The notes beneath the pieces are model-generated. The model was not told the DNA's origin and made no database searches. It saw nothing but the letters and a program-made list of their open reading frames with translations. Shown here one piece after another: positions 1-38,461 of a stretch of 64,000 nt of DNA. The position numbers and the translations under genes are program-made. The stretch's first letter is position 1. The number at the start of each line of letters is the position of its first letter. This stretch comes from Aquilaria yunnanensis (taxonomy: Eukaryota > Streptophyta > Magnoliopsida > Malvales > Thymelaeaceae): contig CM077599.1 in assembly GCA_039654915.1 (NCBI GenBank), positions 29,511,501 through 29,575,500 of the forward strand. The letters run 5' to 3'.

Positions 1-827
1 CCAGAACAAAAGATGAAGAAGTACAACAAATAGGACGCGAAAGAGGGATTCCCCTCGTAGGTACTGTGGCTACCGGTCCTCGTCTATCCTATTCTGCCAA
101 AAGGCCCAATTATTATCCTACCAATAGGCCCAATGACTATCCTCCCAATATGCCCAATGATTATCCTTCCAATAGGCCTAATGATTATCCTCCCAATAGG
201 CCCAACAATTATCCTCTCAACAGGCCTAATCAGTTACGGCCACCTGTTCCGACTCCTCCAGTACCCACACGAAGACCAAAAGAAGTTTTTGCACCAATTC
301 CCATGACTTACACTGAGTTGTATCCAAAACTCATAGAAATTCAACTTATCCGTCCAATTCCTACAAATCCATTTGGACCCCAATATCCAACGTGGTATGA
401 CCCCAACATAACTTGCCCATATCATGATGGCGTTCCAGGCCATGGCTTGGAAAATTGCACAGCATTGAAACGTATAGTCCAACAATTAATCGAATCAAAG
501 TGGTTGGACTTTTCCGATGAACCGAACGTCACTCACAATCCATTGCCGCCTCATCAAGAAAAACTAGTCAATATGATAGAAGAACACCGGCTGATGAAAA
601 AGTCAGTCAATGATATCATAACCCCTCTTAAGCATGTATATTCATGCCTTGTGAAAGAAGGGATTATCATGGGAAAGCCTTCTTTTGGACATGAAGAAGT
701 TGAAGATGAGGAATGGTGCAACTTTCATGACAGTAAGAGTCATTCTATCCAAGAATGCTCAGAATTCCGTAAGAATTTGCAAAGACTCATAGACTCATCC
801 CAACTTATCGTTTTTATGATGATGTGA
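1..827 (+). pseudogene. Gag C-terminal part, Ty3/gypsy, partial at the window edge
   Basis: The reading frame is open from base 3; the first ATG (66) is internal, so the true start lies upstream. The protein begins with a basic stretch and a GIPLVG..ATGP motif that also occurs near the end of the gag at 34649-35785. Then comes a repeat of NRPNDYPP-type units (about residues 15-55 counted from base 66) and a proline-rich linker. Two CCHC-like knuckles follow, of the form C-x2-H-x5-H-x4-C (CPYHDGVPGHGLENC) and C-x2-H-x4-H-x4-C. Such knuckles bind RNA in retrotransposon Gag. The frame stops at 825-827. The expected continuation lies in another frame from about 813 to 966, so a small indel probably broke gag here; a programmed shift cannot be excluded. 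Confidence 0.85.
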
Positions 828-966: not shown

Positions 967-3550
967 AAAGTGAAGATTTTGAGCTGGAATTACATTGATT
1001 TTGGAAGGGCTCCAAGTCAGATCTGACCTAACAGTCCGCATACATTTTCGAATGACAGGGAATCCTTTGAATAAACTTGTATCTTTGAAAGCTTGCAAAA
1101 GTAATTTAATAGTAAAAATCTCCTAGATTTAGTCCAGAATCTAGGGTGTAGTTTTTGTTAGATGGACACCTGGTATTCTTTCTGGTACAACAAAAAGATG
1201 TAATGCGTGCATTCTACTACTTTCCATTTTTACACTCTTTACCATTATACTATCCATTATTGTCATCACACTTTACTTTTCGACAACCGCTAATTCTTTT
1301 TGTTCTCTAACAAAAAGATGTTGCGTGTGCATTCTACCACTTTTTAATCCCATTATTACTTCTACACATTCTACCAATTTTTACCAAAAATTCAATTATT
1401 ACACCTACACATTCTACCACTTCTTACCAAAAATTCCATTTTTACATCCATCTCTCACTCCTTTCCATTATACTATCCATTATTGCTATCATACTTTGCT
1501 TTCTAAATGATACTACTCGTGGGTGAAAATAAAAAATTAAGGGAAATTTGATAGTAATGATCTTGAAAGTGCTGCCAAATCTAGTAAGAAGGATTTCATA
1601 TGTTGCACCTCAACCCTCAAAAAGAATTCACAGTGATTATCAACATCCTTGCAAGAAGTTTGGGGTTAGCTTCCAAAAAAAAGTTAGCTCTCATATTAAA
1701 TGACTTCAGTGGCCTCCCAATTCTCACAAATGCTCAATAAAAAAAAAATTCTCAGTTTTCCGCAACACAAGTTCCAACAAAGGAAAGAAGTTCATCCCTT
1801 CCATCAAAAGCCATTAAAGGGAAAAATCCAAAACAAAAAAAAGAGACTGAGAGCAAACACAAGCAGCTAAGGCCACTTGAATCATTTCACTTCAAGAAGG
1901 CTATGTTCTCAGTTCTTTGGCAACACAAACTCCGAAAAGAGAAATTCATCCCTTCCATCAAAAGACAACAAGGGAAAATTCAAAGCCAAAAAGGACTGAG
2001 AACAAGCACGAGCAAGCAAGGCCACTTGAGTCATCTCACTTCAAGAGAGTTATCAAGTATGTCATCACCACAGCTCACAAAAAAAAAAGGGAAACAAAAA
2101 AAAAACAAAACAAAACAAAAAAACAAAAACAAAAAAAAAAAGGAAAAAGGGCTCAAACTAGAGCAAAAGAAAAAAAAAATAAAAAAAAGTGAGCTATGGA
2201 TTCTAGACTGAAAACCTGCAAAGGCGGTTTAGAACACAAAAGCAACCCTCAAACCAAGCATGTATAAAGATCACAATAGTTGGGGGGCAACAGATGAGTT
2301 CTAACTTTCTGGAAAGAGTGGCAAATTGAGGTCATCACTATTGAGTTTTTCACCATAATCAAATTTGCTCACGAGTAGTATTAAAAGACCCTTCTTCCAC
2401 ACCACTTAAATTTAACTTTTCTCAAACCGAACATCCTCATTCAATTAAAAGACTATCATTGCGAACCATGTTTCTACCTTATTTAATACTGCTCACGAGT
2501 AGTATTAAAAGACCCTTTTTTCACACCACTCAAACTTAACTTTATTCAGACCTAATATTTACCTCTTAATATCATTCTCATTCAGTTAAAAGACTGCCAC
2601 AAAAAAAAAAAAAACATTCAAACTTAACTTTCCTCACACTTAACATTTACCTCTCGATATCATCCTCATTCAGTTAAAAGGCTATTATTGTGAATCATGT
2701 TTTTACCTTATTGCCTTGCACAGTTTATGTCTTCGAGTTGGAAAGGGAAGAATGGCAGGATATTTTAATTAAAAACAAAGACCGTAAATTACTTTGTCAA
2801 GCTTTGCAAATTGATGAAAGTTTTTCTTTAAGGCCAAACCATTATTCATTAATGTATGTAGACTTAAAAGTGAGGAGATAGCTTGAGTCTTTCTTTAATA
2901 AGATGTGGTTCTTGTAAGAGAAATTTACGATCAAGTGCCATCACAAAGGTCTAGAAATGCTCGACCTTCTATTAAATTAAAGGCGAGATGATACCTTTTA
3001 TCCACATAAATACCATATTCAGGGGAGCAAAGTAGTCTCTACGAAGCGTAAGAGGAGTACTGCCAACAAAGAAGTTCAATAGACAATGGGGCAAGTCTTA
3101 TGGATCAAAACATGAGTTCAAGGAAGAGCAATCATTCAGATTATAACATGGGGATAAGTAAGTGTCGGCACGGTCACAAGAAAAGGGGCAAAGCAGACAT
3201 TGAAAGTAAAGCCTTTGATGGTATCAAATCCATGACAATGGATGAGTACCCGAAAGAGATATAAATTATGAGGCGGGCCAACTTTAAAGAAATTGAGGCC
3301 AAAATTCAAAGAACAAGTCAAAGAAAGAGGATTTTGAAAAGAGTTGGGCTTTTGAGGCAGTGAACAAAAGCTGGAAAGCATAAAGAGATTCAATGATAGT
3401 CCAAGAAGGCAATCACAAAGAAGATCCAGTAAAGCAAAGACATGAAGAACTAGATCCATTAAAAAAAAAAAAAAAAAAACATCAATTCCACATGCTCTGC
3501 ATTCATGCATTTCACATCATGCATGCATGGCTTTTGCATAATAGGAACCA
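967..3550 (+). other. Conserved non-coding spacer of the Ogre/Tat-like element
   Basis: No convincing gene is present. The spacer is homologous, in inverted orientation, to about 32700-34550 inside the second element. Examples are the stretch around 1020-1200 and the stretch around 2690-2860 (counterpart 33235-33390). A unit of about 145 bp is imperfectly duplicated at about 1740-2060, and oligo-A runs occur at 2080-2190 and 3462-3479. Short ORFs here (for example 2690-2881) are frameshifted in the other copy and are not treated as genes. The pol genes would be expected in this region of a complete element. Confidence 0.7.
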
Positions 3551-3679
3551 AATGGGAAGCACATCCACGGCACAGTTTCAGCAGTATAAGCTGAGATCAC
3601 AATGACATCAGCTCTTATCAATCTACCGCCGGATACACAGCTGATATGTTGGACCCAGCCCCATCAGCAATTCAAGGAT

Positions 3680-3940
3680 AAAGTAGACAATATTGTCAAA
3701 AGCTTAGTATTCGATTCAATAGTCGAGGCTACACCTGGATGGACAGAATTGACGTCAGCTTAGCGGTATCCAAGATAAGAAATAGCTATGGTCAAAGATA
3801 AGCGCGGATATCGAGAAATATTGTCGTCGAAAGCAGACAATGGATTCAATAATCAAGGACTGGATCAATGTCATGCCTGATGAGACATCAAAGATAAGAA
3901 ATATCTATGATACCAAAATAAAGTAGGATCCACTTTTCCG
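3680..3940 (+). promoter_or_regulatory. Duplicated upstream module before the first NABP gene
   Basis: Two imperfect copies of a unit of about 125 bp lie in tandem (start near 3685 and near 3812). They share an ATTGTC..AAAGC block, a GATTCAATA.TC block and a GATAAGAAAT block. The first copy contains the palindrome TGACGTCA at about 3751-3758, the core bound by plant bZIP factors, and both copies contain GATAAG motifs. I see no clear TATA box before the ATG at 4045, so the transcription start is unknown. The promoter role is inferred from position and motif content. Confidence 0.4.
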
Positions 3941-4044
3941 GTTAAACAGCGGATACGGTACTCCGTGACTCTCAAGTCGGTTCTCTCAGTTGCCCATAAT
4001 AACTGATTCCTTCACCCCTTCTTTCTTTTACTTCCTCCTAGAAA

Positions 4045-4593
4045 ATGGATCCTACTTCTTCCGCCTTGCGAAAGTATTTCCCTTCTCTCCCAATGAACAT
4101 CCTAAAAAAGATCTACCGAGTTCGCTGTGAACGATTAAGAGCTCTGATACACAAAGGAATACCTGAAGATGTACGGTGGTTAATCGAAGCCAAGGTTCGT
4201 CTGGCAGGTGAAATCCCAGAGACATTTGCATCTTACATGCCTGGTGTAGGCAAAAGCTCTTTTGCCAAAAAGCGAAGAGCGAAAAGGTTACAAGTCTGCC
4301 ATAAATGTGGACGGTGGACTTGTAATACTAAATGTCGTTCTTTAGGGATGATCTCTGATAATCGAGAAGATAAAATACGATTCATTAAGAATGGCCTGAG
4401 TAAGGACTCGTTGGATGATATCCAATTGACTCTTGAGACCCATTCTTGTGGATCCGTGCAACGTGAACTTCTTGGTTTATGGAGCATTTTTCATGAAGAA
4501 CGAAACCGTTACAGTCTCGGGAATCTGACTGTAAATGACCCTGTTTGCCAGCTTGTAAGAAAACTGGATGGGAAGCAAATCCTCGACTCATAA
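4045..4593 (+). CDS. NABP-like cysteine-rich zinc-finger protein, copy 1 (virus-derived)
   Basis: This intact 182-codon ORF resembles the nucleic-acid-binding protein family of carlaviruses, mandariviruses and allexiviruses (Pfam Viral_NABP). In those viruses it is a small basic zinc-finger protein that binds RNA and in several cases suppresses RNA silencing or affects host transcription. Seen here: an N-terminal helix-like region with a conserved KYFPSLP motif (10-16), a basic cluster KKRRAKRL (75-82), then a four-cysteine finger C85-x2-C88-x4-C93-x3-C97. A conserved C-terminal block around NDPVCQ (about 164-169) follows. The ATG follows a pyrimidine-rich leader shared with the other copies. 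The whole ORF is in one exon. It lies inside a retrotransposon, 289 bp before the second copy. The family call rests on the basic-cluster-plus-finger pattern and its spacing; a profile search would settle it. Expression is not shown. Confidence 0.75.
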   Translation: MDPTSSALRKYFPSLPMNILKKIYRVRCERLRALIHKGIPEDVRWLIEAKVRLAGEIPETFASYMPGVGKSSFAKKRRAKRLQVCHKCGRWTCNTKCRSLGMISDNREDKIRFIKNGLSKDSLDDIQLTLETHSCGSVQRELLGLWSIFHEERNRYSLGNLTVNDPVCQLVRKLDGKQILDS

Positions 4594-4755
4594 AGGCCGT
4601 TAATGCCGTTACTAGATGTAAAGCCAGTGGAAGATGTGAGTCACAGTCACAATTACTGTACATACAGTTTTTTATATTTGGAAAAGTTTGCATTTTCTTT
4701 TGACAGATGTACATGCTCCCCTAAGTGTAATCGACACGTTATCCCTTTTCATCAC

Positions 4756-4782
4756 TATAAATGCGTGTTCTTCCTTCTGATT
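4756..4782 (+). promoter_or_regulatory. TATA box and probable start region of NABP copy 2
   Basis: TATAAATG begins at 4756 inside a TTTTCATCACTATAAATG context. Nearly the same context precedes copy 3 (5582) and LOG (6678). The leader from about 4775 (ending ..GATTAAGCAGCGGATA..) is shared with the leaders of copy 1 and of both NABP copies in the Athila-like elements. Homology therefore starts about 20-25 bp after the TATA box, close to where a transcript would begin. Confidence 0.55.
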
Positions 4783-4882
4783 AAGCAGCGGATAAGATAC
4801 CTCGTGACTTCTAAAGTCGGTTATTCCAGTCTCCTACAATAACTGATTCATTTCCCTCTTCTCTCAAATTCTTCTCTCATCA

Positions 4883-5431
4883 ATGGATTCTACTCTTTCT
4901 GCACTACGAAAATACTTTCCTTCCCTTCCAATAAAAGTCCTTAAAAAGATCTACCTTGCTAGATGTGAAAGAATCAGAGTTTTTACACGCAAAGGCATTC
5001 CCGATAATGTGCAGTGGATAATTGAAGCTAAGGTCCGTTTGGCAGGTGAAGTTCCAGATGCATTTATGCCCCGCATGCCCGGTTTAGGTAAAAGCCGTTA
5101 TGCCAAAAGGCGAAGAGCAAAGAGACTAGGCGTGTGTTATAAATGTGGGCGATGGAATTGTATTACTAAATGTCGCTCTTTAGGATACATCTCCATAAAT
5201 CGTGAAGATAAAAGAAAATTCATTAAGAATGGCCTGCGTAAGGAATCTCTGGAAGATATCCGAGAGACTCTTGAAAGGCATTCTTGTGGAAAAGTGCAAG
5301 GTGAAATTATCGGTTTATGGAGGACTTACCATAAAGAACGAAACCGTTACAGTCTTGGGAATGTGACTTTAAACGATCCTGTTTGTCAGTTTGTAAGAAA
5401 ACTGGATGGGAAGCAAATCCCCGACTTATAG
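4883..5431 (+). CDS. NABP-like cysteine-rich zinc-finger protein, copy 2 (virus-derived)
   Basis: The second copy is also exactly 182 codons and aligns with copy 1 without gaps. By eye roughly 70 percent of residues are identical. The basic cluster (KRRRAKRL, 75-82) and all four finger cysteines (85, 88, 93, 97) are retained, as is the NDPVCQFVRKLDGKQI block near the C-terminus. Substitutions are spread over the protein and many are conservative, as expected if the protein was maintained for some time. The gene has its own TATA box 127 bp upstream of the ATG and a pyrimidine-rich leader with CAATGG at the start. An RNA-binding or silencing-suppressor role is known for the viral family and only inferred here. 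Confidence 0.75.
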   Translation: MDSTLSALRKYFPSLPIKVLKKIYLARCERIRVFTRKGIPDNVQWIIEAKVRLAGEVPDAFMPRMPGLGKSRYAKRRRAKRLGVCYKCGRWNCITKCRSLGYISINREDKRKFIKNGLRKESLEDIRETLERHSCGKVQGEIIGLWRTYHKERNRYSLGNVTLNDPVCQFVRKLDGKQIPDL

Positions 5432-5581
5432 AAGGCATTAAAGCCATTACTGGACATAAATCAGGGGAAGATGAGAGCCACAGTCATGATTGCTGTACAT
5501 ATAAGCTGTCATTTGTCTTTTCTTTTGACAATAATGTACTTGCTTCTGCAAGTGTAATTAACGCATTATCCCTTTCATCAC

Positions 5582-5589
5582 TATAAATA
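5582..5589 (+). promoter_or_regulatory. TATA box of NABP copy 3
   Basis: TATAAATA lies 74 bp before the ATG at 5656, in the context CCTTTCATCACTATAAATAT. The upstream spacer (about 5480-5580) has one copy of the module that is repeated before LOG, including CTGTACAT and ACAATAATGTAC blocks. Confidence 0.55.
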
Positions 5590-5655
5590 TATGTTAGTTA
5601 TTTCCGTTTCCTACAATCAATAATTTCTTTCTTCTCTTAAATACCTCCTTCATCA

Positions 5656-6204
5656 ATGGAGTCTTCTCTTTCCACCCTACGAAAGTATTTTCCTTCCTTC
5701 CCAATAAATGTTCTTAAAAAGATTTATCAAGCTAGATGTGAACGATTCAGAGTATTTGTGCACAAAGGCATTCCTGATAATGTGCGGTGGCTAATCGAAG
5801 CTAAGGTTCGTTCAGCTGGTGAAGTTCCAGAAGCGTTCTTTCCCCGTATGCCCGGCTTTGGTAAAAGCGCTTATGCCAAAAAAAGAAGAGCAAAGAGGCT
5901 AGGCGTTTGTCATAATTGTGGATGGTGGATTTGCGGCAATAAATGTCGTTCTCCAGGAGTGATCACCAGAAATCGTAATGATAGAATAAGATTCATTAAG
6001 AATGGCTTGCGTAAGGAATCTCTAGAAGATATTCGAGAGGTTCTTGAAGCGCATTCTTGCGGAATAGTGCAATTTGAGGTTGTTGGATTATGGATAATTT
6101 TCCAAAAAGAACGAGATCGTTACAGTCTTGGGAATCTGACCCTAAACGACCCTGTTTGCCAGTTTGTGAGAAAGCTAGATGAGATGCAAATCACCGATTC
6201 ATAG
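5656..6204 (+). CDS. NABP-like cysteine-rich zinc-finger protein, copy 3 (virus-derived)
   Basis: The third intact 182-codon copy is collinear with the other two. The four cysteines (85, 88, 93, 97) and the basic cluster (KKRRAKRL) are kept, while residues between the cysteines differ most (CHNCGWWICGNKC). The protein is closer to copy 2 than to copy 1 over its N-terminal half, which suggests successive tandem duplication. The stop (6202-6204) is followed by a tail related to the sequence after the stops of the other copies, so the duplicated unit includes gene and spacer. Nothing in the reading frame is broken. Confidence 0.75.
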   Translation: MESSLSTLRKYFPSFPINVLKKIYQARCERFRVFVHKGIPDNVRWLIEAKVRSAGEVPEAFFPRMPGFGKSAYAKKRRAKRLGVCHNCGWWICGNKCRSPGVITRNRNDRIRFIKNGLRKESLEDIREVLEAHSCGIVQFEVVGLWIIFQKERDRYSLGNLTLNDPVCQFVRKLDEMQITDS

Positions 6205-6256
6205 AAAGCATTAAAGCCATTACTGGACGCAAAGCCAGTGGAAGACGAGGATCAAA

Positions 6257-6640
6257 GTCACGATTACTGTACGTGCTAGCTGTCGCTTTTGAAATTTTCC
6301 TCCCCTTTCGGCGATAATGTATCCACTCCTGACATGAGCCATAGTCACGATACTGTACATGCTAGCTGTCGCTTTTGAAATTTTCCTTCTCCTTTGGCAA
6401 TAATGTACCCACTCCTGACATGAGATACAGTTATGATTACTGTATATAGCTGCCACTTTTTAAAATTTTCCTTCTCTTCCAACAATCACGTACCTACTCC
6501 TGACATAAGCTACAGTAGTGACTACTGTACATGCTAGCAGCTATTTTGAAAATTTTCCTCCTCTTTTAACGATAGTGTACCCATACCTGACCAGAGTCAT
6601 ACTCGTGACTACTGTGAATAGCTGGCAATAATGTATCTAT
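6257..6640 (+). repeat. Amplified 86-bp upstream module before LOG
   Basis: Four full copies start at about 6257, 6344, 6430 and 6515 (spacing 85-87 bp), and a partial fifth starts near 6603. Each contains ACTGTAC(A/G)TGCTAGC-like, AAATTTTCCT and ATAATGTA(C/T)CCACTCCTGACAT-like blocks, with drift. Single related copies lie in the spacers before NABP copies 2 and 3. This is an upstream promoter module, tandemly amplified only in front of LOG, so an enhancer-like effect is possible but not shown. Confidence 0.7.
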
Positions 6641-6677
6641 TCTTGAAAATAAAATTATTACTTTATCTTTTCATCTC

Positions 6678-6685
6678 TATAAATA
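6678..6685 (+). promoter_or_regulatory. TATA box of LOG
   Basis: TATAAATA in the context TTCATCTCTATAAATATATC is nearly the same as the TATA region of NABP copy 3. A start about 30 bp downstream would fall near 6708, just before the ATG at 6718. This argues for 6718 as the initiator rather than the in-frame ATG at 6631, which lies upstream of the TATA box. Confidence 0.6.
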
Positions 6686-6717
6686 TATCATCTTTTCTCA
6701 CAAGGGTAAGGATAGGA

Positions 6718-7347
6718 ATGGAGAAAACCCGAACTCGTAAATCCCGAAGTATTTGTGTATTTTCTGGGGCTTTTCCTGGAAAAGATGAAGAGTATTTAAA
6801 AGCAGCCAACCATTTGCGTAGAGTATTAGCTGAGCGAAAAATACATTTAGTTTATGGAGGAGGTAGTGTCGGATTAATGGGAGGTGTAGCATCAGCAGCA
6901 TCTCTAGGAGGAAGTCAAGTTCTGGGCATTATCCCTGGACCTCTGAAATTTATTTTTGGGGGCACGATTGGAGAAGAATTAGTGGTTAAAAATTTGCAAG
7001 AGCGTGTGTTACAAATGCTTTTAAATGCTGATGTTTTTATCGCTCTACCAGGTGGTTTTGGCACATTGGGAGAAGTCTTTCAAATTGCTTCCATGGCCCA
7101 ACTTAATTTGCATAAGAAACCCATTGGGCTTTTAAATGTTAACAATTTCTTTACAGGTCTGATAGCTTTTATGGATTATGCTATGCAGAAGAATTTCATA
7201 TCAAGAGTGGCACGGCGAATCATAATATCCGCAACAACTGCTGAAGAATTGCTAGATAAAATACAAGCTTTTGTTCCTGAACCAGATCCAGCAATGATTC
7301 AGATAGACTGGACACGACAGTCTTTCCCGACCAGTTCACTCCCATAA
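6718..7347 (+). CDS. LOG: LOG-type cytokinin riboside 5'-monophosphate phosphoribohydrolase, divergent and intronless
   Basis: The 209-residue product belongs to the LOG (formerly lysine decarboxylase-like) family, which releases active cytokinin base from its riboside monophosphate in the cytosol or nucleus. Seen here: the Rossmann-like start ICVFSGAFPGK (12-22), LVYGGGSVGLMGGVA (44-58), a retained catalytic-type Arg at 96, and the signature PGGFGTLGE (111-119) with the catalytic Glu at 119. KKPIGLLNVNNFF (133-145) follows. Length fits plant LOGs (about 200-230). It is divergent: PGGxGTLGE replaces the usual plant PGGYGTLEE, and the 72-100 segment is atypical. Known plant LOG genes contain several introns, and this copy has none, so a retrocopy or other RNA-based capture is likely. 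The start is chosen from the TATA position. It sits in retrotransposon DNA with an NABP-type promoter. Enzyme activity is inferred from motifs only. Confidence 0.88.
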   Translation: MEKTRTRKSRSICVFSGAFPGKDEEYLKAANHLRRVLAERKIHLVYGGGSVGLMGGVASAASLGGSQVLGIIPGPLKFIFGGTIGEELVVKNLQERVLQMLLNADVFIALPGGFGTLGEVFQIASMAQLNLHKKPIGLLNVNNFFTGLIAFMDYAMQKNFISRVARRIIISATTAEELLDKIQAFVPEPDPAMIQIDWTRQSFPTSSLP

Positions 7348-7364
7348 TGGTCCTCTACTCACCC

Positions 7365-7610
7365 TGTTGAAGTATTGTGGAAGAAAGAAGCGATCTGATC
7401 CGTTTTTCTTGTCCTTTAGTTTTATTATCAGCATTTTCTTTCGCGTTTCAGTTTTTCTTTTTAGGGAATTTCTTTTTTCATAATATAGCTTCGTCCATGC
7501 TGATATTAAAACCATAGGACAACGCCTTTAGGATGGAATGGCTGAGTAAAGAGTAATTTTTATTACTCTTGAGACGCATCCTATTAGGTCTACTAGGCAT
7601 AACATTTTGC
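7365..7610 (+). mobile_element. Fragment of Athila-like 3' untranslated region
   Basis: Several blocks match the minus strand downstream of the NABP pseudogenes in the Athila-like elements. They include TTATTATCAGCATTTTCTTT, a GCTGATATTAAAACCAT block and a long match around TTACTCTTGAGACGCATCCTA followed by GGCATAACATT. The counterpart runs at about 16246-16610 and again near 26190-26520. After about 7610 the similarity stops. The fragment is foreign to the Ogre-like element and marks the 3' side of the cargo. Confidence 0.7.
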
Positions 7611-7900
7611 GGTAGTTAAGCTTTAACCTTATTTGGATGACATATCTTACAAGGGAATCTATATTTACTGAAGAAAATATTAGATGAACCTTGAATATTG
7701 ATTCCAAACATCCGTTTCCTTTACATAATTTGTCAGGGTTATTGTCATCATTAAGATTCACTCGTTTTATCGAAGCCTAATTCTTTGCGCTCGCCTATTA
7801 TGAAAATTCACACTTTCAAAGAAAATTATTCCTATTTCAATTGCTTTCATATAAATTTCGCTCGAGGTCCTAAGGAAAGCTTCTTAGCCTCAAAATCAAT
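7611..7900 (+). other. Cargo/element junction, no gene
   Basis: No coding signal is seen. From about 7800 the sequence resumes similarity to the second Ogre-like element (GAAAATTCACACTTT.. here, counterpart on the minus strand near 32000), so the right border of the cargo lies between about 7610 and 7800. Confidence 0.5.
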
Positions 7901-9230
7901 TTTCATCATCGGGGTTTTAAGGATGGAACCTTTGCCTCGAAAACAATCAATTTTCATCGGGGTTGTAAGGATGGAACCTTTGCCTCGAAAATAATCAATT
8001 TTCATCATCGGGGTTTTAAGGATGGAACCTTTGCCTCGAAAATAATCAATTTTCATCATCGGGGTTTTAAGGATGGAACCTTTGCCTCGAAAACAATCAA
8101 TTTTCATCATCGGGGTTTTAAGGATGGAACCTTTGCCTCAAAAATAATCAATTTTCATCATCGGGGTTTTAAGGATGGAACCTTTGCCTTGAAAACAATC
8201 AATTTTCATCATCGGGGTTTTAAGGATGGAACCTTTGCCTCGAAAATAATCAATTTTCATCATTGGGGTTTTAAGGATGGAACCTTTGCCTCGAAAATAA
8301 TCAATTTTCATCATCGGGGTTTTAAGGATGGAACCTTTGCCTCGAAAATAATCAATTTTCATCATCGGGGTTTTAAGGATGGAATCTTTGCCTCGAAAAT
8401 AATCAATTTTCATCGTCGGGATTTTAAGGATGGAACCTTTGTCTCGAAAACAATCAACGGTAGGACTGCTCCTATCGTCGGGATTTTAAGGATGAAACCT
8501 TTGTCTCGAAAACAATCAACGGTAGGACTGCTCCTATCGTCGGGATTTTAAGGATGGAACCTTTGTCTCGAAAACAATCAACGGTAGGACTGCTCCTATC
8601 GTCGGGATTTTAAGGATGGAACCTTTGTCTCGAAAACAATCAACAGTAGGACTGCTCCTATCGTCGGGGTTTTAAGGATGGAACCTTTGCCTCGAAAACA
8701 ATCAATTTTTATCATCGGGGTTTTAAGGATGGAACCTTTGCCTCGAAATCAATCAATCAATCCGAGGTTTTAAGGATGGAACCTTTGCCACGAGATCAAT
8801 CAATCAATTCGAGGTTTTAAGGATGGAACCTTTACCTCGACATCAATCAATCAATCCGATGTTTTAATGATGGAACCTTTGCCTCGAAATCAATCAATCG
8901 ATCCGAGGTTTTAAGGATGGAACCTTTGCCTCGAGATCAATCAATCAATTCGAGGCTTTAAGGATGGAACCTTTACCTCGACATCAATCAATCAATCTGA
9001 GGTTTTAAAGATGGAACCTTTGCCTCGAAATCAATCAATCAATCTGAGGTTTTAAGGATGAAATCGTTGCCTCGAGATCAATCAATCAATTCGAGGTTTT
9101 AAGGATGGAACCTTTGCCTCGAAATCAATCAATCAATTCGAGGTTTTAAGGATGGAACCTTTGCTTCGAAATCAATCAATCAATCCGAGGTTTTAAGGAT
9201 GGAACCTTTGCCTCAGAAACAATCAATTTT
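7900..9230 (+). repeat. Tandem-repeat tract before the polypurine tract
   Basis: About 26 degenerate units share a core of GGTTTTAAGGATGGAACCTT followed by TGCCTCGAAA. Unit length changes along the tract: about 51 bp at 7900-8450, about 62 bp with an AACGGTAGGACTGCTCCTATC insert at 8450-8690, then about 47 bp with ATCAATCAATCAAT spacers to 9230. Long reading frames on both strands arise only because 51 is divisible by three. A related, more diverged tract occupies the same position in the second element (30890-32620). Confidence 0.9.
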
Positions 9231-9380
9231 CCTTCAACGATAGAAGAACTCCTATCGCCGGGGTTCTAAGGAGAGTTCCTTAACCTCAGGATTTAGGCGG
9301 CGAAAAGGTTTTCAATGCCTAGCTAAGTCGGACGAAATTTGGTAACTAACTTTGCATACATCATGTCCCATGAAGCATGC

Positions 9381-9393
9381 AAAGGGGGGCAGC
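9381..9393 (+). other. Polypurine tract (PPT)
   Basis: AAAGGGGGGCAGC directly abuts the LTR start TGTTGACACCC. The same tract and junction occur in reverse orientation at 30870-30882. It is the expected primer for plus-strand DNA synthesis. Confidence 0.85.
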
Positions 9394-12300
9394 TGTTGAC
9401 ACCCAATTTCGTCCGACCATAAAAAATTTCTTTAAAAGAAATTAAATAAAAGAAATTAAAAAATTATTATTTTTATTATTATTACTAAAAATTTTAATTA
9501 GTTTAAAATACATTTTTGTTTTGTGAAGATTTGATTTAAAATGATATATGTGTGTATTTGAAAGAAAAAAAAGAAAACTCCAAAAAAATGGCAAAATTCA
9601 AAAGTTTGAGGTAAAAATGACAAAATTAAGAAGTTTCGGGAAAAATTGACAAATTCTGAAAGTTCCAGGAGCATTTGGTAGTTTGTCACATGAATTTTTG
9701 GGTCGACCGACGTTTCTGGCCCAAATTGACAGAAAACGACAAAATTGTCAAAATCAGAAGCTTCAGGAACTTATCAAGAGGCTGAGAGACGTAAAGGACT
9801 GAAATTGTCATTTTACCAATTTAAAAGATAAGTTTGAAATTTTTTATTAATTTATCCATCAACATTTCGGCCAAACATCCTCTATAAATAGGCCTCCAAA
9901 TTTAGTTCTGAATACAGAAAAAAATAGAAAGAAAACTTAGAGCTCCGTTTTAAAAAAAAAATAAAATTACAGCCTTATTCCCTAGATTATTCTCCCTCTG
10001 CCCAGAAAGTCTCAAAAATTCGTTTTCTTACGATTCGACCATCTTCTTCGTTTGTTTTCTTTTCTTCCGTTTCACATCTCTCTCTCTTTCCTGCACGCTG
10101 CCTGACCGCCACCTCCCCCCGCCGTCCCTCTGCCGTCGTCCCGCCGCCGCCGCCTCTACCGCCGTCGTCCGCGCCTCCCCTCCGCCGTGACTTTTTTCTT
10201 TCTCCTTCCCTTTCCGGCCGTCGTCCCGCATCGCCGTGCTGCCGTCACGCCGCCGCCGCTCCCCCGCCGTCGCCTCGCCGTCCACGCCCCCCGCCGTCGC
10301 CCCCTGCCAGCCCACGCCGCCGCCACCTGCTCTTCCTTCCTCCCTCCTCCTTCCCTGCTCCCTTCCCTGTGCGCGCGAAGTCACGTTTCTTAACAGGAGA
10401 TTCAAAAAATTAAATTTAAAAGGGTAAACCCCTATTTAATCCTTCATCTTTTCAATTTCTTTCACTTTGGTCACTAACTTTTTATTTTGTTCTTGCAGAA
10501 TTAATTACTAACCCTTTTAATTTTTACTTGTTTGTTTACTATTTGTTTATTACTAACCCTTTCTTTATTGTTGTTGTTAACAACTAACTTTACTAACAAC
10601 TAACTTTTATTATTATTGTTATCACTAACTTTTATTTTTGTTATACTAACAATTAATTGTGCTAACCACTAACTTTCATTATTATTGTTATCACTAACCA
10701 TTTAATTTTTGCTATACTAACAATTAACTGTGCTAACCACTAACTTTCATTATTATTGTTATCACTAACCATTTAATTTTTACTATACTAACAATTAACT
10801 GTGCTAACCACTAACTTTCATTATTATTGTTATCACTAACCATTTAATTTTTGCTATACTAACAATTAACTGTACTGACCGCTGACTTTTATTATTATGG
10901 ACTAATCATTTATTACGCTTACTTATTAGGACTAATCAAGAATCCAATTTTTACAAAGCCCCCATCCTTTATTATTTGGAACATATTTTTATCAAAAGTT
11001 AACCTTTATTTCCTTTTATTAAAAACATAATTAAATAATTCCAAAAATACAAATCAATTTTTTTTTTAAACACATCTTTAAAGTAATGATATTTAAAATT
11101 TAAAAAAAATTCAAGAAAAATTATGATTTTATTAATAATTAATTAAATAAAATTTAATAAAAATTAAATTCCATGACCAAATGATCCGCCAGGATCCATG
11201 GCTTGGAAAATATTTTAAATAAAGTATATAAATCATTTTTTTAAATAAAGTATATGAATAAATTTTCTTTTTATTATTAAAAAATAAAAAAAAACTTTGG
11301 GATAATATTTTACTTATGTTTTTTATCCAGTAATATTTTACTTATTTCTCTTAAAATAATAAAAGGATATAACTTTTTGTTTCCTTTATTAAACAAAATA
11401 AAAATTTTACCCAAATAATTTCAAATAAAGGTAATAAAAAAATTAAATTTTTTCTTAAATATTTTAGACTTATAAATTACATAATTACTTTAAGATCTTT
11501 TATCAAGAATAAAAAAAAATTTATGAATATCAAGACTTTTCTTTCACTTAGATTTTTTTTAAATATATAACTCTTTGTTTTCTTTAGTAAATAAAATTTC
11601 ATTAAATAATTAAATAACTACTTTTTGGCTAACCTTTTACCAAATAAAATGAATAAAAGAAATATTAAGATTTTTCTTTTATTTTTGAAATATACATATA
11701 AATTTTTATTTTCTTTATTAAATGATCACTTTTGATTAATCTTTTCTTAAAAAAATAAAATAAATAAAATATTAAGACTTTACTTTTATTTTTAAAATAT
11801 ACATCTTTAGTTTTCTTCATTAAATAAATAAAACCTTGATTAAATAATTTCTTTTTGGCTTAACTTTTATCAAATAAAAAGAATAAAAAAAAAGAATAAA
11901 AGAACAATAAAATACTTTATAATTTTTAAAATTATTAAAAATTCAAAATTTTCATAATACTAATAATTAATAATTATATAACTAACAATTAATTAAAGTA
12001 ATTTCCATATCCGGATGATCCGGCAGGTTTTACGGTTTGGAAAATATTAACTTTTTTTAACTAAATAAATTAAATAAATATAAAGATAAAAATCCATATT
12101 TACAATATGGATAAAATTCTTTAAAATTTCGTCAAATTCCGTGTCCGGGTGACTCGGCAGAGTCCATGGTTCGGAATCAAATCTTTCGTGTCCAAATGAC
12201 TCGGCAGAGTCCATGGTTCGGAAGTATAAAATTCTATACAAATTAACTTAAAAATCCATATTTCGACTAATTCAGTTAAAATTTCTAAATTAACTGAAAA

Positions 12301-12484
12301 TTATTTAAAAGCAATGTAAAACAAAATTAAAATCAACTAAGGTGCCAATTTTGGGCGCTATAACAATATTGTTTTAGCGTAACCGTACTCCCGATCCCCG
12401 AACTCTCGCAGACCAATTTTAAGGTGACCAATCGACCTAAGAAAACTGATTGGTGGCGACTCCAGAAAACCCGACGTTGCCACA
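9394..12484 (+). repeat. 3' LTR of the cargo-bearing element (3.1 kb)
   Basis: It starts TGTTGACACCCAATTTCGTC and ends ..CGTTGCCACA, matching both ends of the 1.7-kb LTRs at 29150-30869 and 38462-40188 (..CGTTGCTACA). The last 140 bp are similar in both, including the CGCTATAACA../TTTTAGCGTAACCG and CGACCTA..AAAACTGATTGGTGG blocks. A TATA box (TATAAATA, 9883-9890) is followed by a GC-rich tract (10085-10380) also present in the shorter LTRs. Units of about 73 bp repeat three to four times at 10600-10890. A CCGGGTGACTCGGCAGAGTCCATGG-like motif recurs near 11170, 12005, 12140 and 12190. The region 10900-12350 is very AT-rich and makes this LTR longer. Confidence 0.85.
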
Positions 12485-12559
12485 CTAGTCAATAATTCAT
12501 TATATATTAAAGTAATCAAATTTTATAGAAAAAGTCAATTATAAATAACTGAAGGTCAA

Positions 12560-16743: not shown

Positions 16744-17284
16744 CTATGAGTAAGGGATTTGCTTCCATCAAATTCTCTTACAAACTTAGGGTCTTTTAAA
16801 GTTAGATCCCTAAGATTGTAACGCTCTCGTTCTTTATGAAAAATACTCCATAAACTAAGAAGTTTGCTTTGCACTAATCCACAAGAATGTGTCTCAAGAG
16901 TCAATGGGATATTATAAAAAAAATCCTTACTCAGGCCATTCTTAATGAATTGTATTTTATTTTCTCAATTATCAGACACTATCCCTAAAGAATGACATCT
17001 AGTATTACAAGTCCATTGACCATATTTGTGACAGACTCGTAACCTTTTTGCTTTTCACTTTTTGGTATAAGAGCGTTTGCCTAAGCCAGGCATATGTAAC
17101 ACAAATGAATTTAGGATTTCACCAGCCAAATGAACCTTAGCTTCAATTAACCAACGTACATATTTGGGAATGCCTTTATGCATCAAAACTCTTAATCTTT
17201 CACATCTAGCTTGGTAAATCCTTTTAAGAACATTTATTTGGAAAAAGGAAAAGTCTTTTTGCAAAGCAAAAAGAACAAAAACCT
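16744..17284 (-). pseudogene. NABP-like pseudogene in element 2
   Basis: This is a decayed relative of the intact NABP genes at 4045-6204, readable for about 70 codons (17264-17055) and then broken by several stops and small deletions. The initiator ATG is lost, the basic cluster is interrupted by a stop just after GKRSYTKK, and at least one cysteine of the finger is substituted. The leader (17285-17380) and the tail after the stop are also shared with the intact copies, so the captured unit is larger than the ORF. It lies directly downstream of the truncated reverse transcriptase. Confidence 0.8.
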
Positions 17285-25401: not shown

Positions 25402-26650
25402 TTTATTTTGTGAGGGCTTTTTCATATGGTCTCGCTTTTGCCTTTTTCTACAAGAAATAATAAATTAAAATTCATTTAAAACTCAACCATCCAATGATAT
25501 GCACTCAATTTTATCATTCAAGCTCAACTCACCCCAAACCTTCCATTATGACAAAAAGCAACCTAACATATCCTAAAGTACACCTATACATTTATTCTTT
25601 ATTTTGTTGAAAACAACACATTCATTTTAATTCTCTAATGCCCAAAATCATATAAGCATCACATAAGCATTGTTAGTTCCAAATACAATAAAGAATCAAA
25701 ATGAAGTGGAAACGGTTAAACATGCAGGGTTCAAACAAAGAATTAGGCTATAAGGCTCAAAGAGGCTCACTAAGGGATAATGTACAAGGTTAGCCTTTTG
25801 GTAAGTGGTTAGCCATAAAATGCCATCTTCGTCATTAAATTTATATACAATAAGCGAGGTTGCAGAGGTCCTTAAGGTCACCTATCTAAGCAAGGCCTAG
25901 CTCAAAACACAAAGTAAGCACTCTCAACAAAGAAATTCTCTCATCCTAATAAAAACTAAGGGCTCAAAAGTGCTCATTGGGTTATTTATTTTCCTTAGGT
26001 AACAAGCAACATACTTTAACTACTTTAAAAAATTAACAATCATTTCAAGTTTACAAGATATATATCCAATGATGATATTTCCATGAGTTGGGTTCCTAAA
26101 TGCAAACAAACAACCTAAATTTATGTTAAATGTTCCTAAATGCAACTATTTACACTTGCAAAAAAAATGTTATGTCTATCGTACAAAATAGGATGTGTCT
26201 TAAGAGTTAAAATTACTCCTTACTTAGCCATCCTAAACTAAGAGCTTTATCTAATGGTTTTAATATCAGCATGGCAAAAACTACCCTAAAAGAAAAAAAA
26301 ATCATGTGCCAACTATCCCTCCCCCCAACCAGATTAAGACATTGTCTCCAATGTCAAAATATAAATAAGAAGAGTGAAGAAGAAATTACCTGAAATGGTA
26401 GTTATTGAACATGAAAACCCTGAAATAACTTAAACCAAAATAAAAAAAATGCTGATAGTAAAACTAAAAGACATGATAAACAGATCCACAAGTGTAGATT
26501 GCTCTCTTCTACAGCGCTTAATCACTTATTAAGATTGACAGCCTATAAAGGAAAAAAATAACAAAAATAAAATAACATGTATGTATAGTAGTTGTGATTA
26601 TGACTCACATCTTCATCTAGTTTTACGTCCAATAACAGCATCAACGCCTT

Positions 26651-27210
26651 CTATGAGTGGGGGATTTGCTTCCCATCCAGTTTTCTTACAAATTGGAAAA
26701 TAGGGTCTTTTGAAGTCAAATTCCCAAGACCTGAACGCTCTTGTTCTGTATGAAAAATACTCCATAAATCAAGAAGTTCATTTTGCACTAATCCACAAGA
26801 ATGTGTCTCAAGAGTCAATCGAATATCATCCAAAGAATCCTTACTCAGGTCATTCTTAATGAATTGTATTTTATCTTCTCGATTGTCGGACACCATCCCT
26901 AAAGAACAATATCTAGTATTACAAGTCCGTCGACCATATTTGTAACAGACTTGTAACCTTTTTGCTCTTCGCTTGCTCTTCGTGTTTTGGCATAAGAGCT
27001 TTTGCCTAAACCAGGCATGTAGGATACAAATGAATTTGGGATTTCATCAGCCAAACGGACCTTAGCTTCAATTAACCAACGTAAATCTCCAGGAATACCA
27101 TTATGCATCAAAACTCTTAATCTTTAACATCTAACTGGATAAATCTCTTTAAGAACATTTATTGGGAGAGAGGGAAAATATTTTTGCAAAGTAGAAAGAA
27201 CATAATCCAT
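26651..27210 (-). pseudogene. NABP-like pseudogene in element 3
   Basis: The copy retains the ATG at 27210 and the stop at 26651-26653. Its span is 560 bp, exactly 11 bp longer than the intact 549-bp genes. The extra bases are a tandem duplication of an 11-bp CGAAGAGCAAG unit in the basic cluster (near 26970), which shifts the frame. A second lesion turns codon 29 (Glu in copy 1) into TAA, and two cysteines of the finger are replaced by tyrosine. It is therefore recently dead and better preserved than the copy at 16744. It is closest to copy 1 around the central region. Confidence 0.85.
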
Positions 27211-29149: not shown

Positions 29150-30869
29150 TGTAGCAACGTGATTTGTAGGAGTCACCACCAATCAGTTTTCCTAGGTCGA
29201 TTGGATACCTGAAAAATGGTCTGCGAGAGATTCTAAGATCGTGAGTCGGTTACGCTAAAATAACCCTATTAAAGCGCCCGAGAATTGGTACCATGGGGTT
29301 TAGTTTTATCTTTTCCTAACCATTTATTTCTTGACATAATCTTTGATTTAAAGTGATTCTTATGGATTTTATTTAATTTTTAATTTCAAACCGGGGATCT
29401 TATCAAACCAACCGAATATGGAACAAATAATCCGTCTCGGGATTTTATCAAACCAACAAGAACGGACATCCTGAAAAATAAATGCCAAGTACTAAAAATA
29501 TAAAAAGAGTTATCTTCATTTGATTTCTTGCTAATGTCTAGATAATGAGAAAAATAAATAAAATCTAAGCAATTAAAAAAAATTAATTATTATTTATTCT
29601 AAGACACATTATGAGATCCTAAAACCAAATTGCATAATCCCAAAGTTAGTTAATAAAAATAAAAGATGACTGAGGTAATTTAAGAAAATAAAATAGAATA
29701 AACTTGCTGTCAGTGATTGATCTGCAAATAGAAGAACGTTAGTGACTCAGATGAATAAAACAAATAAATCCAGGGGCTAAACGAGGGTTATACTAAAAAG
29801 AAGGTGAAATTGAATTGAATCTGGGTCACAGGTCGGGTTTTGGCTAGCAAAACGGGTCACGAATCATCAGAGAGGGAGAAGGGCAACGGTGGAGCATGAA
29901 CGGCGGCCTTGGGACCAGGAGGATGACTCTGGCGGTGTCGACGATGATGGCGGAGGAGCTGCGATGGGCCGGCGGTTTCGGGGTGACTGGAGCAGTGGCG
30001 TGACGGGCTGGGCAGGGAGCCCAGTGCAAGGGACGGCGGCGTCGGGCTAGAAGGGGTTGACGGAGAGACGACGGAGAAGGGTGGTCGACGAACGGGAGAG
30101 GAAGACGAAGGCTTGAGCCTGGAAGACGACAAGTGACGGAGGGGAAGGGTGGCGGCGCAATAGGGGAGAAGTTTAGGGTTTCTGGGAAGAAGGGAGGAGA
30201 GGCAGGGTTTAGAGTTGCAGTTTTCCCTTTTTCGGGATTGGGAGCTTAGGGCTTCGTCTGTCCCTGTTTTTCGAGCCACTAGTGTCACATATTTATACTA
30301 GGAAGTCCTAGGCGAGATTAACTAGGTTGTCCTAGTTTAAAACTGATCCAAATTCAATTTTAAAGAGTTTTGGTAAAAATGCTAATTGAAGTCCAGAAGA
30401 ACTCTTAATCTGCTGTTTCGCCCCAAACTCTATTCGAATTTCCAATTTCACTCAATACTTCTTTAATCTGTCAATTAAGCCCAAAACTTTGCCAAAATCA
30501 CCAGATTTTCCTAGAACTTCAGGATTTCGCCAGATTTTCGCCAAACTCTCAATTTTTGACAGATTTACCTCAATTTTCCAATTTTGACAGATTAACCCCA
30601 AACTTTCAACTTTTGCTAAAAACTTTCTAAAAATCCCCAATTTCCTCCTAAACTTTCTTTTTTGCCCAAATTGACCCTACAACACTTTTAGGACTCCAAA
30701 TTAGTACCTAAACTAAATTAACTCCTATTTTTACCCTAGATGATCAAAAAAACCAAAAATTACCTGAAAGACTAAAATGCCCCTATAAAAATCAAAATGC
30801 TCCTAAACTAATTTTCCGAACCTAAAAATTAAACAAAAGTCAGTGCCCGGACAAAATTGGGTGTCAACA
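29150..30869 (-). repeat. 3' LTR
   Basis: It is 1,720 bp long; on the plus strand it runs TGTAGCAACGTG.. to ..GGGTGTCAACA. It differs from the other LTR by few substitutions and lacks a 7-bp insertion found there near 39460. A TATA box on the minus strand (TATAAATA near 30297-30290) is followed by a GC-rich tract at 30190-29870. Confidence 0.93.
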
Positions 30870-30882
30870 GCTGCCCCCCTTT
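30870..30882 (-). other. Polypurine tract
   Basis: The minus strand reads AAAGGGGGGCAGC directly before the 3' LTR start TGTTGACACCC, identical to 9381-9393. Confidence 0.88.
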
Positions 30883-30889
30883 GCATGTC

Positions 30890-32620
30890 TCATAAAATAT
30901 GACGCATGCAAAGCCATTACCAAGTTTTGTCCGGCCTTACCTGGACGATGAGAGCCTTCTCACCGCCGAAACCTTGAGGAGAAGGAACCTTCCTCTCCTC
31001 CCCTTTGAGGCTAAGGAACCTTCCCTATTACCTTTATGATAGAAACTTTCCTATCATTTAGGAATCTAAGGAGCAAAACTCTTTCCTCCTTGATTACCAG
31101 GCCTAGGAACTTTCCTAGCCTTTTGCAATAGGAACTTTCCTACTGCTTTCAAACCTAAGAAGAAAAACCTTTTTCTTCTTTGTGAGGTTAAGGAACCTTC
31201 CTTAGTACCTCTACGATAAGAACCTTCCTATCGTCTAAGAATTTAAGGAGAAAAACTTTTTCCTCCCCGTCTACCAAGTCTAGGAACTTTCCTAGGCTTT
31301 TCGCAATAAGAACTTTCCTATTGCTTCAAAACCTAAGAGGAAAACTTTTTCCTTTTTTCTTGATGAGTTAAGGAACCTTCCTCACCCTTGTCCCTATAGA
31401 AACCTTTCTATAGAAGAGAGAAACTTTTCTCTCAATCTTAACTTTGGTAGAGAACTCTCTCACACCATGATCTAAGAGATGGAGAACCTTTTCTTTACCA
31501 CCTCTTGTAGTCTTCGAGGTAGAGAACACTGTCTCTTACAACCTTTAAATTTCTTTGAGGTAGAGTACCCTGACTCTTTACCACCTCCAAATTCCTTTGA
31601 GGTAAAGCACCTTGACTCTTTATCACCTCTGATGACTTTTGAGGTAGAGAACCCTGTCTCTTTACCACCTCTAAATGCTTGAGGTAGAGTACCCTGACTC
31701 TTTACCACCTCTAAAAATGCCTGAGGTAGAGTACCCTGACTCTTTACCACTTCTAATTTACCCCATACTATGAGAAAAAGAATGACTTTGCTTTTGAAAA
31801 CTTGGATTATCCTTGTCTTAGATGTGATGAGGTAGAGAAACCTTCCTCATAAAAAAAAACCTCTGTTTGACTTAAACCTCGAGGAAAAGAATTACTTTCT
31901 CTTTGGAGCCTTGTCTTAGCTTTGGTTTTGAGATATAGGAACTCTCCTTGTTATCTCAAGCAAAAACAACTAGACTTAAAATAATTTCCTCAAAAGTGTG
32001 AATTTTCCAAATGGGTGAATGCCAAAAAAACTTGAAATGAGTGAATCTTTGAAGTGAGAAACACTTTAAGAGTTGAAACTGTCTTAAAAAATGAGCTTTG
32101 AGAACGACTGTCCAAATAAGATAAAATTGCTTTGAAAAGTGGTATGACAACTTATGGATGCCCACCTCTCCAATATGCCCCCCCTATCATGAAAGTAAAC
32201 CATGATTTCTTTGATGGTGAAAACCTACCTAGATTTCGATCATTGAAAACTTACTTTAATATTGCAATAGGTGTTATGATGTAGAGAAACTTTTCTCATT
32301 TAAAACCACGTTTGACTCAAGTTACGAGAAAGAGAGTTACCATCTCTTTTGAACCTCGGTTTAGCCTTCCTTCGAATGTGACGAGGTAGAGAAACCCTTC
32401 TCATTTAGACCTCGGTTTAGCTTTCCTTTGAATGTAATGAGGTAGAGAGACCCTTCTCGTTGGAATCTCGGTTTAGCTTTCCCTTGACTGTGACCAGGTA
32501 GAGAAACCCTTCTCGTTGGAACCTCGATTTAGCTTTCCTTTGAATGTGACGAGGTAGAGAAACCCTTCTCGTTGGAACCTCGGTTTAGCTTTTCCCTTGT
32601 CCAAAATGTCTCCCCCTTAA
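30890..32620 (-). repeat. Degenerate tandem-repeat tract before the PPT
   Basis: Units of about 30-70 bp alternate on the plus strand between AAGGAACCTTCC, GAGGTAGAGAACCCTGTCTC and GAGGTAGAGAAACCCTTCTC-type cores. Reverse-complemented, they correspond to the GGTT..AAGG..GGAACCTTT..CTCG units at 7900-9230. Open frames here (for example 31472-31750) are by-products of the periodicity. Confidence 0.8.
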
Positions 32621-38458: not shown

Positions 38459-38461
38459 AGC

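What the first reader, a model, noticed from the sequence alone, without database searches (positions are those of the whole stretch)
3550..7790. Retrotransposon cargo of three virus-type NABP genes plus a LOG gene
A block of about 4 kb between the spacer and the 3' repeat tract of an Ogre/Tat-like element carries three intact genes of an RNA-virus nucleic-acid-binding family and one intact cytokinin-activating enzyme gene. The related element at 29150-40188 has the spacer and repeats but no cargo, so the cargo was gained by (or lost from) one lineage. I know of no described element with this combination. A zinc-finger RNA-binding protein could shield element RNA from silencing and LOG could alter cytokinin in host cells; both roles are inference.
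Basis: partly seen in the sequence, partly recalled or inferred. Interest (0 to 1): 0.95.

Follow-up and report, generated by a model that had tools for sequence, protein, structure and literature searches.

The report
Retrotransposon armed with virus-type genes
In this plant genome a recently inserted retrotransposon family carries three or four genes of an RNA-virus nucleic-acid-binding family plus one gene of the LOG (cytokinin-activating enzyme) family, selection has kept their proteins conserved, and they likely help the element escape silencing and stimulate the cells it lives in.

Summary
Window 4045-6204 encodes three intact proteins over Pfam's cut-offs for Viral_NABP and Carla_C4, and 6718-7347 a LOG-family protein. 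They lie inside one 17.9-kb LTR retrotransposon whose 5' part is outside the window: LTRs 0.6% diverged, perfect 5-bp target duplication. The window copy has an Ogre/Tat-type gag but no detectable pol; another copy has one gag-to-integrase frame plus four NABPs and LOG. So the cargo belongs to a lineage with pol-bearing and pol-less members and thousands of unconfirmed candidate loci. All four genes show purifying selection, weakest in NABP2. TATAAA precedes genes 2-4 in 31 of 32 upstream regions, against about 1 in 10 by chance. Relatives occur in Sapindales, Rosales and Lamiales, sometimes with NABP and LOG together. LOG in plant LTR elements was already published; my searches found no report of NABPs there. 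Silencing suppression and cytokinin activation are inferred; the direction of virus-element transfer is open. Two decayed NABPs elsewhere in the window (16752-17276, 26650-27210) had been missed, one beside Athila-like remains.

The parts
1..827 (+). C-terminal part of gag (ORF begins outside the window, C7:29510504, locus L012 9004)
   Evidence: PF03732 E 3e-12 on the upstream part in L012
828..3559 (+). spacer where other copies have about 1 kb more with a protease-like region (L035) or RT-RH-aRH-INT (L042); no pol detected here
3560..4044 (+). leader of the cargo block (3560-4030 gave 2550 first-look candidates in the genome, 40 scored)
4045..4593 (+). NABP1, 182 aa, C-x2-C-x4-C-x3-C zinc finger after a basic stretch
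4756..4761 (+). TATAAA, 127 nt before the NABP2 ATG
4883..5431 (+). NABP2, 182 aa
5582..5587 (+). TATAAA, 74 nt before the NABP3 ATG
5656..6204 (+). NABP3, 182 aa
6256..6591 (+). 86-bp tandem repeats (3.9 copies) between NABP3 and LOG
6678..6683 (+). TATAAA, 40 nt before the LOG ATG
6718..7347 (+). LOG-family gene, 209 aa, uninterrupted frame, PGGFGTLGE motif
7894..9231 (+). 51/62/47-bp tandem repeat tract
9381..9393 (+). polypurine tract (AAAGGGGGG core)
9394..12484 (+). 3' LTR, 3091 bp (5' LTR at C7:29506101-29509176, K2P 0.0059)
12485..12489 (+). target-site duplication CTAGT (same 5 bases precede the 5' LTR)
16752..17276 (-). decayed single NABP of another element; no LOG; Athila-like gag-protease remains upstream (about 17.3-19.2 kb; motifs recalled)
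26650..27210 (-). decayed single NABP of another element; no LOG; its surroundings 83% alike to 16.2-17.8 kb
29150..40188 (-). related element without cargo: LTRs 29150-30869 and 38462-40188, gag, DUF7745 ORF (PMD below cut-off), no pol detected

Best explanation
The block is a conserved accessory-gene cassette of an Ogre/Tat-type LTR retrotransposon lineage: tandem NABP proteins that likely suppress RNA silencing or otherwise shield and escort element RNA, and a LOG enzyme that is predicted to release active cytokinin and would favour dividing cells in which new copies reach the germ line. Shown: the cassette sits in sense between the gag (or gag-to-integrase) part and the 3' LTR of elements with LTRs, 5-bp target duplications and, in most sampled copies, near-identical LTR pairs. 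It occurs both with an intact gag-to-integrase frame and, as in the window, without pol. The proteins are under purifying selection. TATAAA stands before three of the four genes. Inferred: each of those three genes has its own transcript; pol-less copies are copied in trans by pol-bearing relatives; NABPs act as their flexuous-virus relatives do; LOG is active and alters local cytokinin; the NABP gene came from an RNA virus rather than the reverse.
For: NABP identity: Pfam PF05515/PF01623 over cut-offs; the zinc finger is kept in 83 of 94 aligned rows; in a BFVD fold search the first eight rows all come from flexuous plant viruses and 24 of 38 rows are named silencing suppressor or nucleic-acid/RNA-binding protein of such viruses, though the best E is only 0.023. 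Mobility: TSDs 5 of 5 readable; LTR K2P 0.0059, 0.0040, 0.0034, 0.0003 for four complete pairs and 0 differences in 2395 bp for a fifth whose 3' LTR is cut. Carriers with pol: domains; four NABPs and LOG in the same copy; 8 of 48 pol hits have a listed LOG hit 1-20 kb downstream on the same strand (seven at 5.6-8.0 kb, one at 15.8 kb), shifted-control mean 0.13, maximum 2. Selection: pooled pN/pS NABP1 0.22 (18 copies), NABP2 0.50 (18), NABP3 0.25 (11), LOG 0.24 (10); earlier smaller sets 0.23, 0.52, 0.25, 0.27. Window versus an older copy: one-sided Fisher p 8e-6, 0.013, 1e-6 and 0.0099; other frames 0.46-1.78; 0 gap events in the four ORFs versus 26 in the five noncoding segments. Promoters: TATAAA before NABP2 10 of 11, NABP3 11 of 11, LOG 10 of 10; by chance 310 of 2740 windows of the spacer and 543 of 5000 shuffles. 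NABP beside LOG elsewhere: a Rhamnella gene model fuses the two (P0085), and four NABP/LOG pairs share a contig length (8723, 4511, 2128, 2425; linkage inferred from length).
Against: No expression, small-RNA or biochemical data. NABP1 has no TATAAA within 160 nt (0 of 8). NABP2 is weakly constrained and the pair L037/L032 has dN/dS 2.24 there. The copies compared are related, so pairs are not independent. The NABP model has mean pLDDT 65.7, no viral fold hit reaches E 0.001 and PDB gives none. LOG falls below NCBI's LOG equivalog cut-off (91.9 against 300 bits), and the lysine after the conserved arginine is V here and L, I or M in 87 of the 91 relatives (of 120) that matched my pattern, so catalysis may differ. 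Some copies are broken: frameshifts in LOG of L035 and NABP3 of L024 and L036; stops in NABP1 of L032, L036, L037 and L040, NABP2 of L032, L037 and L040, NABP3 of L032. One off-frame control, LOG frame 1, is also low (0.46, p 0.046). Genome lists hold best hits only.
Confidence: 0.5

Rival explanations
1. NABPs are not anti-silencing factors but extra nucleocapsid/chaperone proteins that package element RNA or carry it into the nucleus, and LOG is a minor passenger.
For: Zinc finger after a basic stretch; gag in the same element; NABPs stand in three or four copies while LOG is single in the copies seen.
Against: LOG is also under purifying selection (pooled 0.24; Fisher p 0.0099) and keeps its PGGxGTxxE motif; TATAAA boxes suggest expression apart from the gag-pol RNA.
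Confidence: 0.25
2. The cassette is selfish baggage: host and viral cDNAs picked up by template switching and copied passively by a recent burst, without a function for the element.
For: Gene capture by LTR elements is known (PMC13317346, passages seen); very young copies are intact simply because they are young; an older copy has one stop each in NABP1 and NABP2.
Against: That older copy (84% DNA identity over the block) shows an excess of silent changes and no indels in all four genes; NABP paralogs in the window have dN/dS 0.24-0.33; relatives keep a length of about 182 aa across eudicot orders.
Confidence: 0.1
3. NABP is at home in plant retrotransposons and flexuous RNA viruses took it from them, so the cargo is not virus-derived.
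For: Present in elements of several eudicot orders and in both Ogre-type and Athila-like contexts; element proteins are longer (182 aa) than most viral ones listed.
Against: No tree with viral sequences could be built here, so this is untested; no viral NABP came back.
Confidence: 0.2

Closest known systems
LOG/YgdH-bearing LTR elements of Citrus and Populus (Steinbauerova 2011, recalled and cited in PMC9289625; PMC9289625 section 12 read)
   Same: A LOG-type domain inside plant LTR retrotransposons
   Different: No NABP genes named in the section read; that survey was anchored on RT, so pol-less carriers like the window copy would be missed
Orchid Gypsy elements with an AlkB RNA demethylase (PMC9289625; passages, section 12)
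   Same: Giant Tat-related element with an extra ORF of a kind also found in flexuous RNA viruses
   Different: One ORF of another enzyme family; no tandem NABPs, no LOG
TR-GAG non-autonomous retrotransposons (PMC8704663, passages)
   Same: LTRs and gag without the rest of pol, probably copied in trans
   Different: The window copy carries four further genes; pol-bearing carriers exist in the same genome
Carlavirus/trichovirus/vitivirus NABP and cysteine-rich silencing suppressors (PF05515, PF01623)
   Same: Basic stretch plus C4 zinc finger, over Pfam cut-offs
   Different: In an LTR retrotransposon, tandem, 182 aa, with N- and C-terminal parts outside the profile match

Membership tests
Ogre/Tat lineage of Ty3/gypsy | additional RNase H between RH and INT (PMC6317226, passages) | tested here: met
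   PF13456 at 395-505 between RT_RNaseH and integrase in the pol-bearing copy; the window copy has no pol to test
[quoted passage not shown]
   47 of 48 scored pol hits have a separate 1144-aa frame, 1 is fused at 2263 aa; many gag hits have frames of 1121-1127 aa; 41,644 candidates, only 48 scored
Ogre/Tat lineage of Ty3/gypsy | PBS to tRNA-Arg, and position in an RT tree | not tested
   PBS region printed but not matched to a tRNA; no RT tree built
TR-GAG | LTRs and gag without pol | tested here: met
TR-GAG | gag as the single ORF (PMC8704663) | tested here: not met
   four further intact genes
Viral NABP (PF05515/PF01623) | profile score over the curated cut-off | tested here: met
   all three proteins, both profiles
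Viral NABP (PF05515/PF01623) | same fold as viral NABP | tested here: inconclusive
   24 of 38 BFVD rows are such proteins but none has E under 0.001; model pLDDT 65.7
LOG cytokinin phosphoribohydrolase | PGGxGTxxE motif and the superfamily profile | tested here: met
   PGGFGTLGE; TIGR00730 140.8 bits, cut-off 96.35; PF03641
LOG cytokinin phosphoribohydrolase | NCBI equivalog model NF058542 | tested here: not met
   91.9 bits against a cut-off of 300
LOG cytokinin phosphoribohydrolase | enzymatic activity | not testable with these tools
   needs a biochemical assay

The most novel reading that the evidence does not exclude
Plant LTR retrotransposons own a mobile counter-defence and growth-control cassette: RNA-virus silencing suppressors amplified in tandem, most under their own promoters, with a cytokinin-releasing enzyme, exchanged between Ogre-type and Athila-type lineages across eudicots and used to open silenced cells and push them to divide.
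Probability: 0.3. Interest if true: 0.95.

Novelty: new variant of a known kind. Interest (0 to 1): 0.76.

Why it matters
Plant retrotransposons are held down largely by RNA silencing, and to my knowledge element-encoded suppressors comparable to viral ones are hardly known. A lineage with thousands of candidate loci that keeps tandem virus-type genes conserved would make 'do retrotransposons fight silencing with viral weapons' directly testable, and a hormone enzyme under selection in a transposon would be a case of host-cell reprogramming by a mobile element. It also links the gene pools of RNA viruses and LTR elements.

Tried and rejected
Tried without result: IMG/VR scan for relatives, 53 pattern hits and none confirmed. 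Protein search with the zinc-finger core to reach viral NABPs: the 120 rows shown of 388 carry no virus name. PDB by sequence for NABP: two chance-level rows. First NABP model from 14 sequences, pLDDT 50.5. Paper searches for NABP in retrotransposons: 'Ogre'/carlavirus/NABP, Viral_NABP (none of the 20 papers listed held that term), endogenous viral elements and silencing suppressors; no listing described it. Searches for LOG in LTR elements: led to PMC9289625; one search listed three expression papers; one search gave PMC9289625 again.

Considered and rejected: insertion of an element around pre-existing host genes (same order in seven sampled copies, TSDs at the element ends); cargo limited to a defective element (a pol-bearing copy has it too). 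Integration of a whole RNA virus was not searched for systematically; I saw only the NABP-type gene among the ORFs that I scanned.

Rows dropped before counts. One search used 12, 11, 10 and 9 copies: L004, L015 (for NABP1/2) and L031 duplicate L018, L002 and L037; L005-L008, NABP2/3 of L003, L040 and the pol-bearing copy were left out then; frameshifted genes (NABP3 of L024 and L036, LOG of L035) and genes cut by a locus end were left out. One search added L005-L008, L040 and the pol-bearing copy for NABP1/2, L003 for NABP2 and the pol-bearing copy for NABP3. Its LOG value (0.855) is an error of mine, one row out of register by a codon; the corrected value is 0.236. The mosaic fourth NABP of the pol-bearing copy is in no pooled value. 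One search used the first 99 of 150 NABP1 hits: 13 of 99 have a LOG hit 1.9-2.8 kb downstream, control mean 0.09; 15 of 109 gag hits have LOG 10.4-12.0 kb downstream; 8 of 93 gag-pro hits have it 6.5-8.3 kb downstream (from a point about 1.5 kb inside the frame); controls 0.3, maximum 2. The C2 copy's 3' LTR could not be matched to its 5' LTR, so its K is meaningless; the C7b copy has LTRs 86-92% alike over the longer pieces with a matching TSD, taken as recombination, and its K (with an unplaced 3' end) is not used. The LOG tree has 31 rows: 27 of the 120 LOG hits (three longer Xanthoceras rows removed by a length filter), the window protein and three solved-structure sequences; the tool warned of long branches meeting.
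Full report
What is there. The window is C7:29511501-29575500 of an unnamed 842-Mb plant assembly. Three 182-aa proteins at 4045-4593, 4883-5431 and 5656-6204 score above Pfam's curated cut-offs for Viral_NABP and Carla_C4, and 6718-7347 encodes a LOG-family protein whose nearest solved structures are two Arabidopsis LOG-type proteins. The NABPs share a basic stretch (KKRRAKR and the like) and a C-x2-C-x4-C-x3-C finger, kept in 83 of 94 aligned rows.

The element. Upstream of the window lie the 5' LTR (C7:29506101-29509176) and the start of gag; the 3' LTR is window 9394-12484; the same 5 bases CTAGT flank both ends. Length 17.9 kb. The two LTRs differ at 18 of 3075 sites (K2P 0.0059), that is 0.2-0.4 million years at two plant rates (recalled). 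Six other copies, chosen from the NABP1 list, have the same layout, with the exceptions of one frameshifted NABP3 and one odd 3' LTR. TSDs are perfect in 5 of 5 copies with both junctions readable. One copy has one difference in 3613 LTR bases, another none in 2395 (3' LTR cut).

Pol-less and pol-bearing versions. In the window copy gag ends at 827 and the spacer follows. A pol protein from a relative finds no match in the window or in the sampled window-type pieces. One copy (L035) keeps a longer gag frame with a protease-like region (Asp_protease_2 at 23.1 bits, just under its cut-off of 24.3). A further copy has one 2263-aa open frame that holds gag and ends with RT, RNase H, a second RNase H and integrase domains (the stretch between was not fetched), followed by four intact NABPs and an intact LOG. 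All 48 scored pol relatives, of 41,644 candidates, are free of stops; 47 have a separate 1144-aa frame. Listed LOG hits lie 10.4-12.0 kb downstream of 15 of 109 gag hits of one search, and 6.5-8.3 kb downstream of 8 of 93 gag-pro hits of another (measured from about 1.5 kb inside the frame), which fits elements with and without room for pol (controls 0.3). First-look candidate numbers (8239 for NABP, 3659 for LOG, 2550 for the noncoding leader) suggest thousands of copies but were not confirmed one by one.

Selection. Among all complete, unshifted copies in hand pooled pN/pS is 0.22 for NABP1 (18 copies), 0.50 for NABP2 (18), 0.25 for NABP3 (11) and 0.24 for LOG (10); a first, smaller set gave 0.23, 0.52, 0.25 and 0.27. 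Stop-free copies: 14 of 18, 15 of 18, 10 of 11 and 10 of 10, frameshifted ones having been left out. Between the window copy and an older copy (L037), silent changes are in excess in the true frame of all four genes (one-sided Fisher p 8e-6, 0.013, 1e-6, 0.0099). The other two forward frames range from 0.46 to 1.78, the lowest being LOG frame 1 with p 0.046. There is no gap event in 2265 coding sites, against 26 in the five noncoding segments. That older copy has one stop each in NABP1 and NABP2. The three NABPs of the window copy differ from each other with dN/dS 0.24-0.33. In the NABP tree the split into NABP1 and NABP2/3 falls within this lineage (12 rows, 100/100), with counterparts of NABP1 (P0002) and NABP3 (P0001) in outside records.

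Expression signals. A TATAAA box lies 127 or 87 nt before NABP2 in 10 of 11 copies, 66-117 nt before NABP3 in 11 of 11, and 39-48 nt before LOG in 10 of 10; none lies within 160 nt of NABP1 in 8 of 8. By chance about 11% of 160-nt windows hold one (310 of 2740 spacer windows, 543 of 5000 shuffles). The copies share descent, so this is conservation of a motif, not a measurement of transcripts.

Relatives. NABP relatives covering nearly the whole query come from Xanthoceras and Acer (Sapindales), Rhamnella (Rosales) and Orobanche (Lamiales) among other records. A Rhamnella gene model fuses NABP and LOG (P0085), and models from Rhamnella (P0075) and Orobanche (P0100) fuse NABP to what I recognise from memory as Athila-type integrase and protease ends (Pfam did not score those ends). 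In the window itself two decayed single NABPs without LOG lie at 16752-17276 and 26650-27210. Upstream of the first is an Athila-like gag-protease stretch (recalled motifs) that aligns weakly with P0100 (E 5e-7); a Pfam scan of one piece found nothing. The LOG proteins nearest to the window's form a set apart from two Arabidopsis LOGs in a tree (95/98), with little sampling of other cellular LOGs and a warning about long branches.

Viral link. Sequence profiles support it. The fold search supports it only as a pattern: 24 of 38 rows are named silencing suppressor or nucleic-acid/RNA-binding protein of flexuous plant viruses, two more (a 15-kDa protein and an HP) come from such viruses, and the first eight rows are all of that kind of virus; yet none reaches E 0.001 and the model is of low confidence. 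Direction of transfer is not settled. That such viral proteins suppress silencing, and that one carlavirus protein also drives host cell growth, is recalled knowledge; the names repeat the first part.

Known or new. PMC9289625 (passages, section 12) reports a screen of 121 angiosperm genomes anchored on RT. It found YgdH/LOG domains in Citrus and Populus element consensuses and an AlkB-type ORF in orchid elements; the section read does not name NABP. PMC6317226 (passages) gives Ogre features. PMC8704663 (passages) reports that a gag-only element can move. Of PMC7264820 I read part 1 of 3 and of PMC11963269 passages: neither described NABP or LOG cargo in what I saw. My searches for NABP in retrotransposons listed nothing that describes it. 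Most subscription papers are outside that library.

Mechanism. I commit to a counter-defence plus growth cassette: NABPs likely blunt silencing of element RNA, LOG would raise active cytokinin, and pol-less copies are probably copied by pol-bearing relatives. Structure, mobility and selection are shown; the three functional steps are not.

Noticed in passing
window 16752-17276 (-) and 26650-27210 (-): Two decayed single NABP genes in older elements, surroundings 83% alike over 1.6 kb, without LOG; the first lies beside Athila-like gag-protease remains.
   Followed up: partly
window 29150-40188 (-): Related element with LTRs 98.1% alike, gag plus a DUF7745 ORF (plant mobile domain below cut-off) and a coiled-coil-like ORF upstream of gag, no pol detected and no cargo.
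   Followed up: partly
L017/L018 (C7:8.30 Mb): A copy whose two LTRs are only 86-92% alike although its 5-bp target duplication is perfect: likely inter-element recombination during replication.
   Followed up: no
L041 2149-2730 (C4:95.13 Mb): A fourth NABP that looks like a mosaic of NABP2 and NABP3, as does NABP2 in L036: recombination between the tandem genes.
   Followed up: no
LOG proteins P0121-P0240: The lysine after the conserved arginine, present in two Arabidopsis and one bacterial LOG, is L, I or M in 87 of 91 matched relatives (of 120) and V in the window protein.
   Followed up: partly
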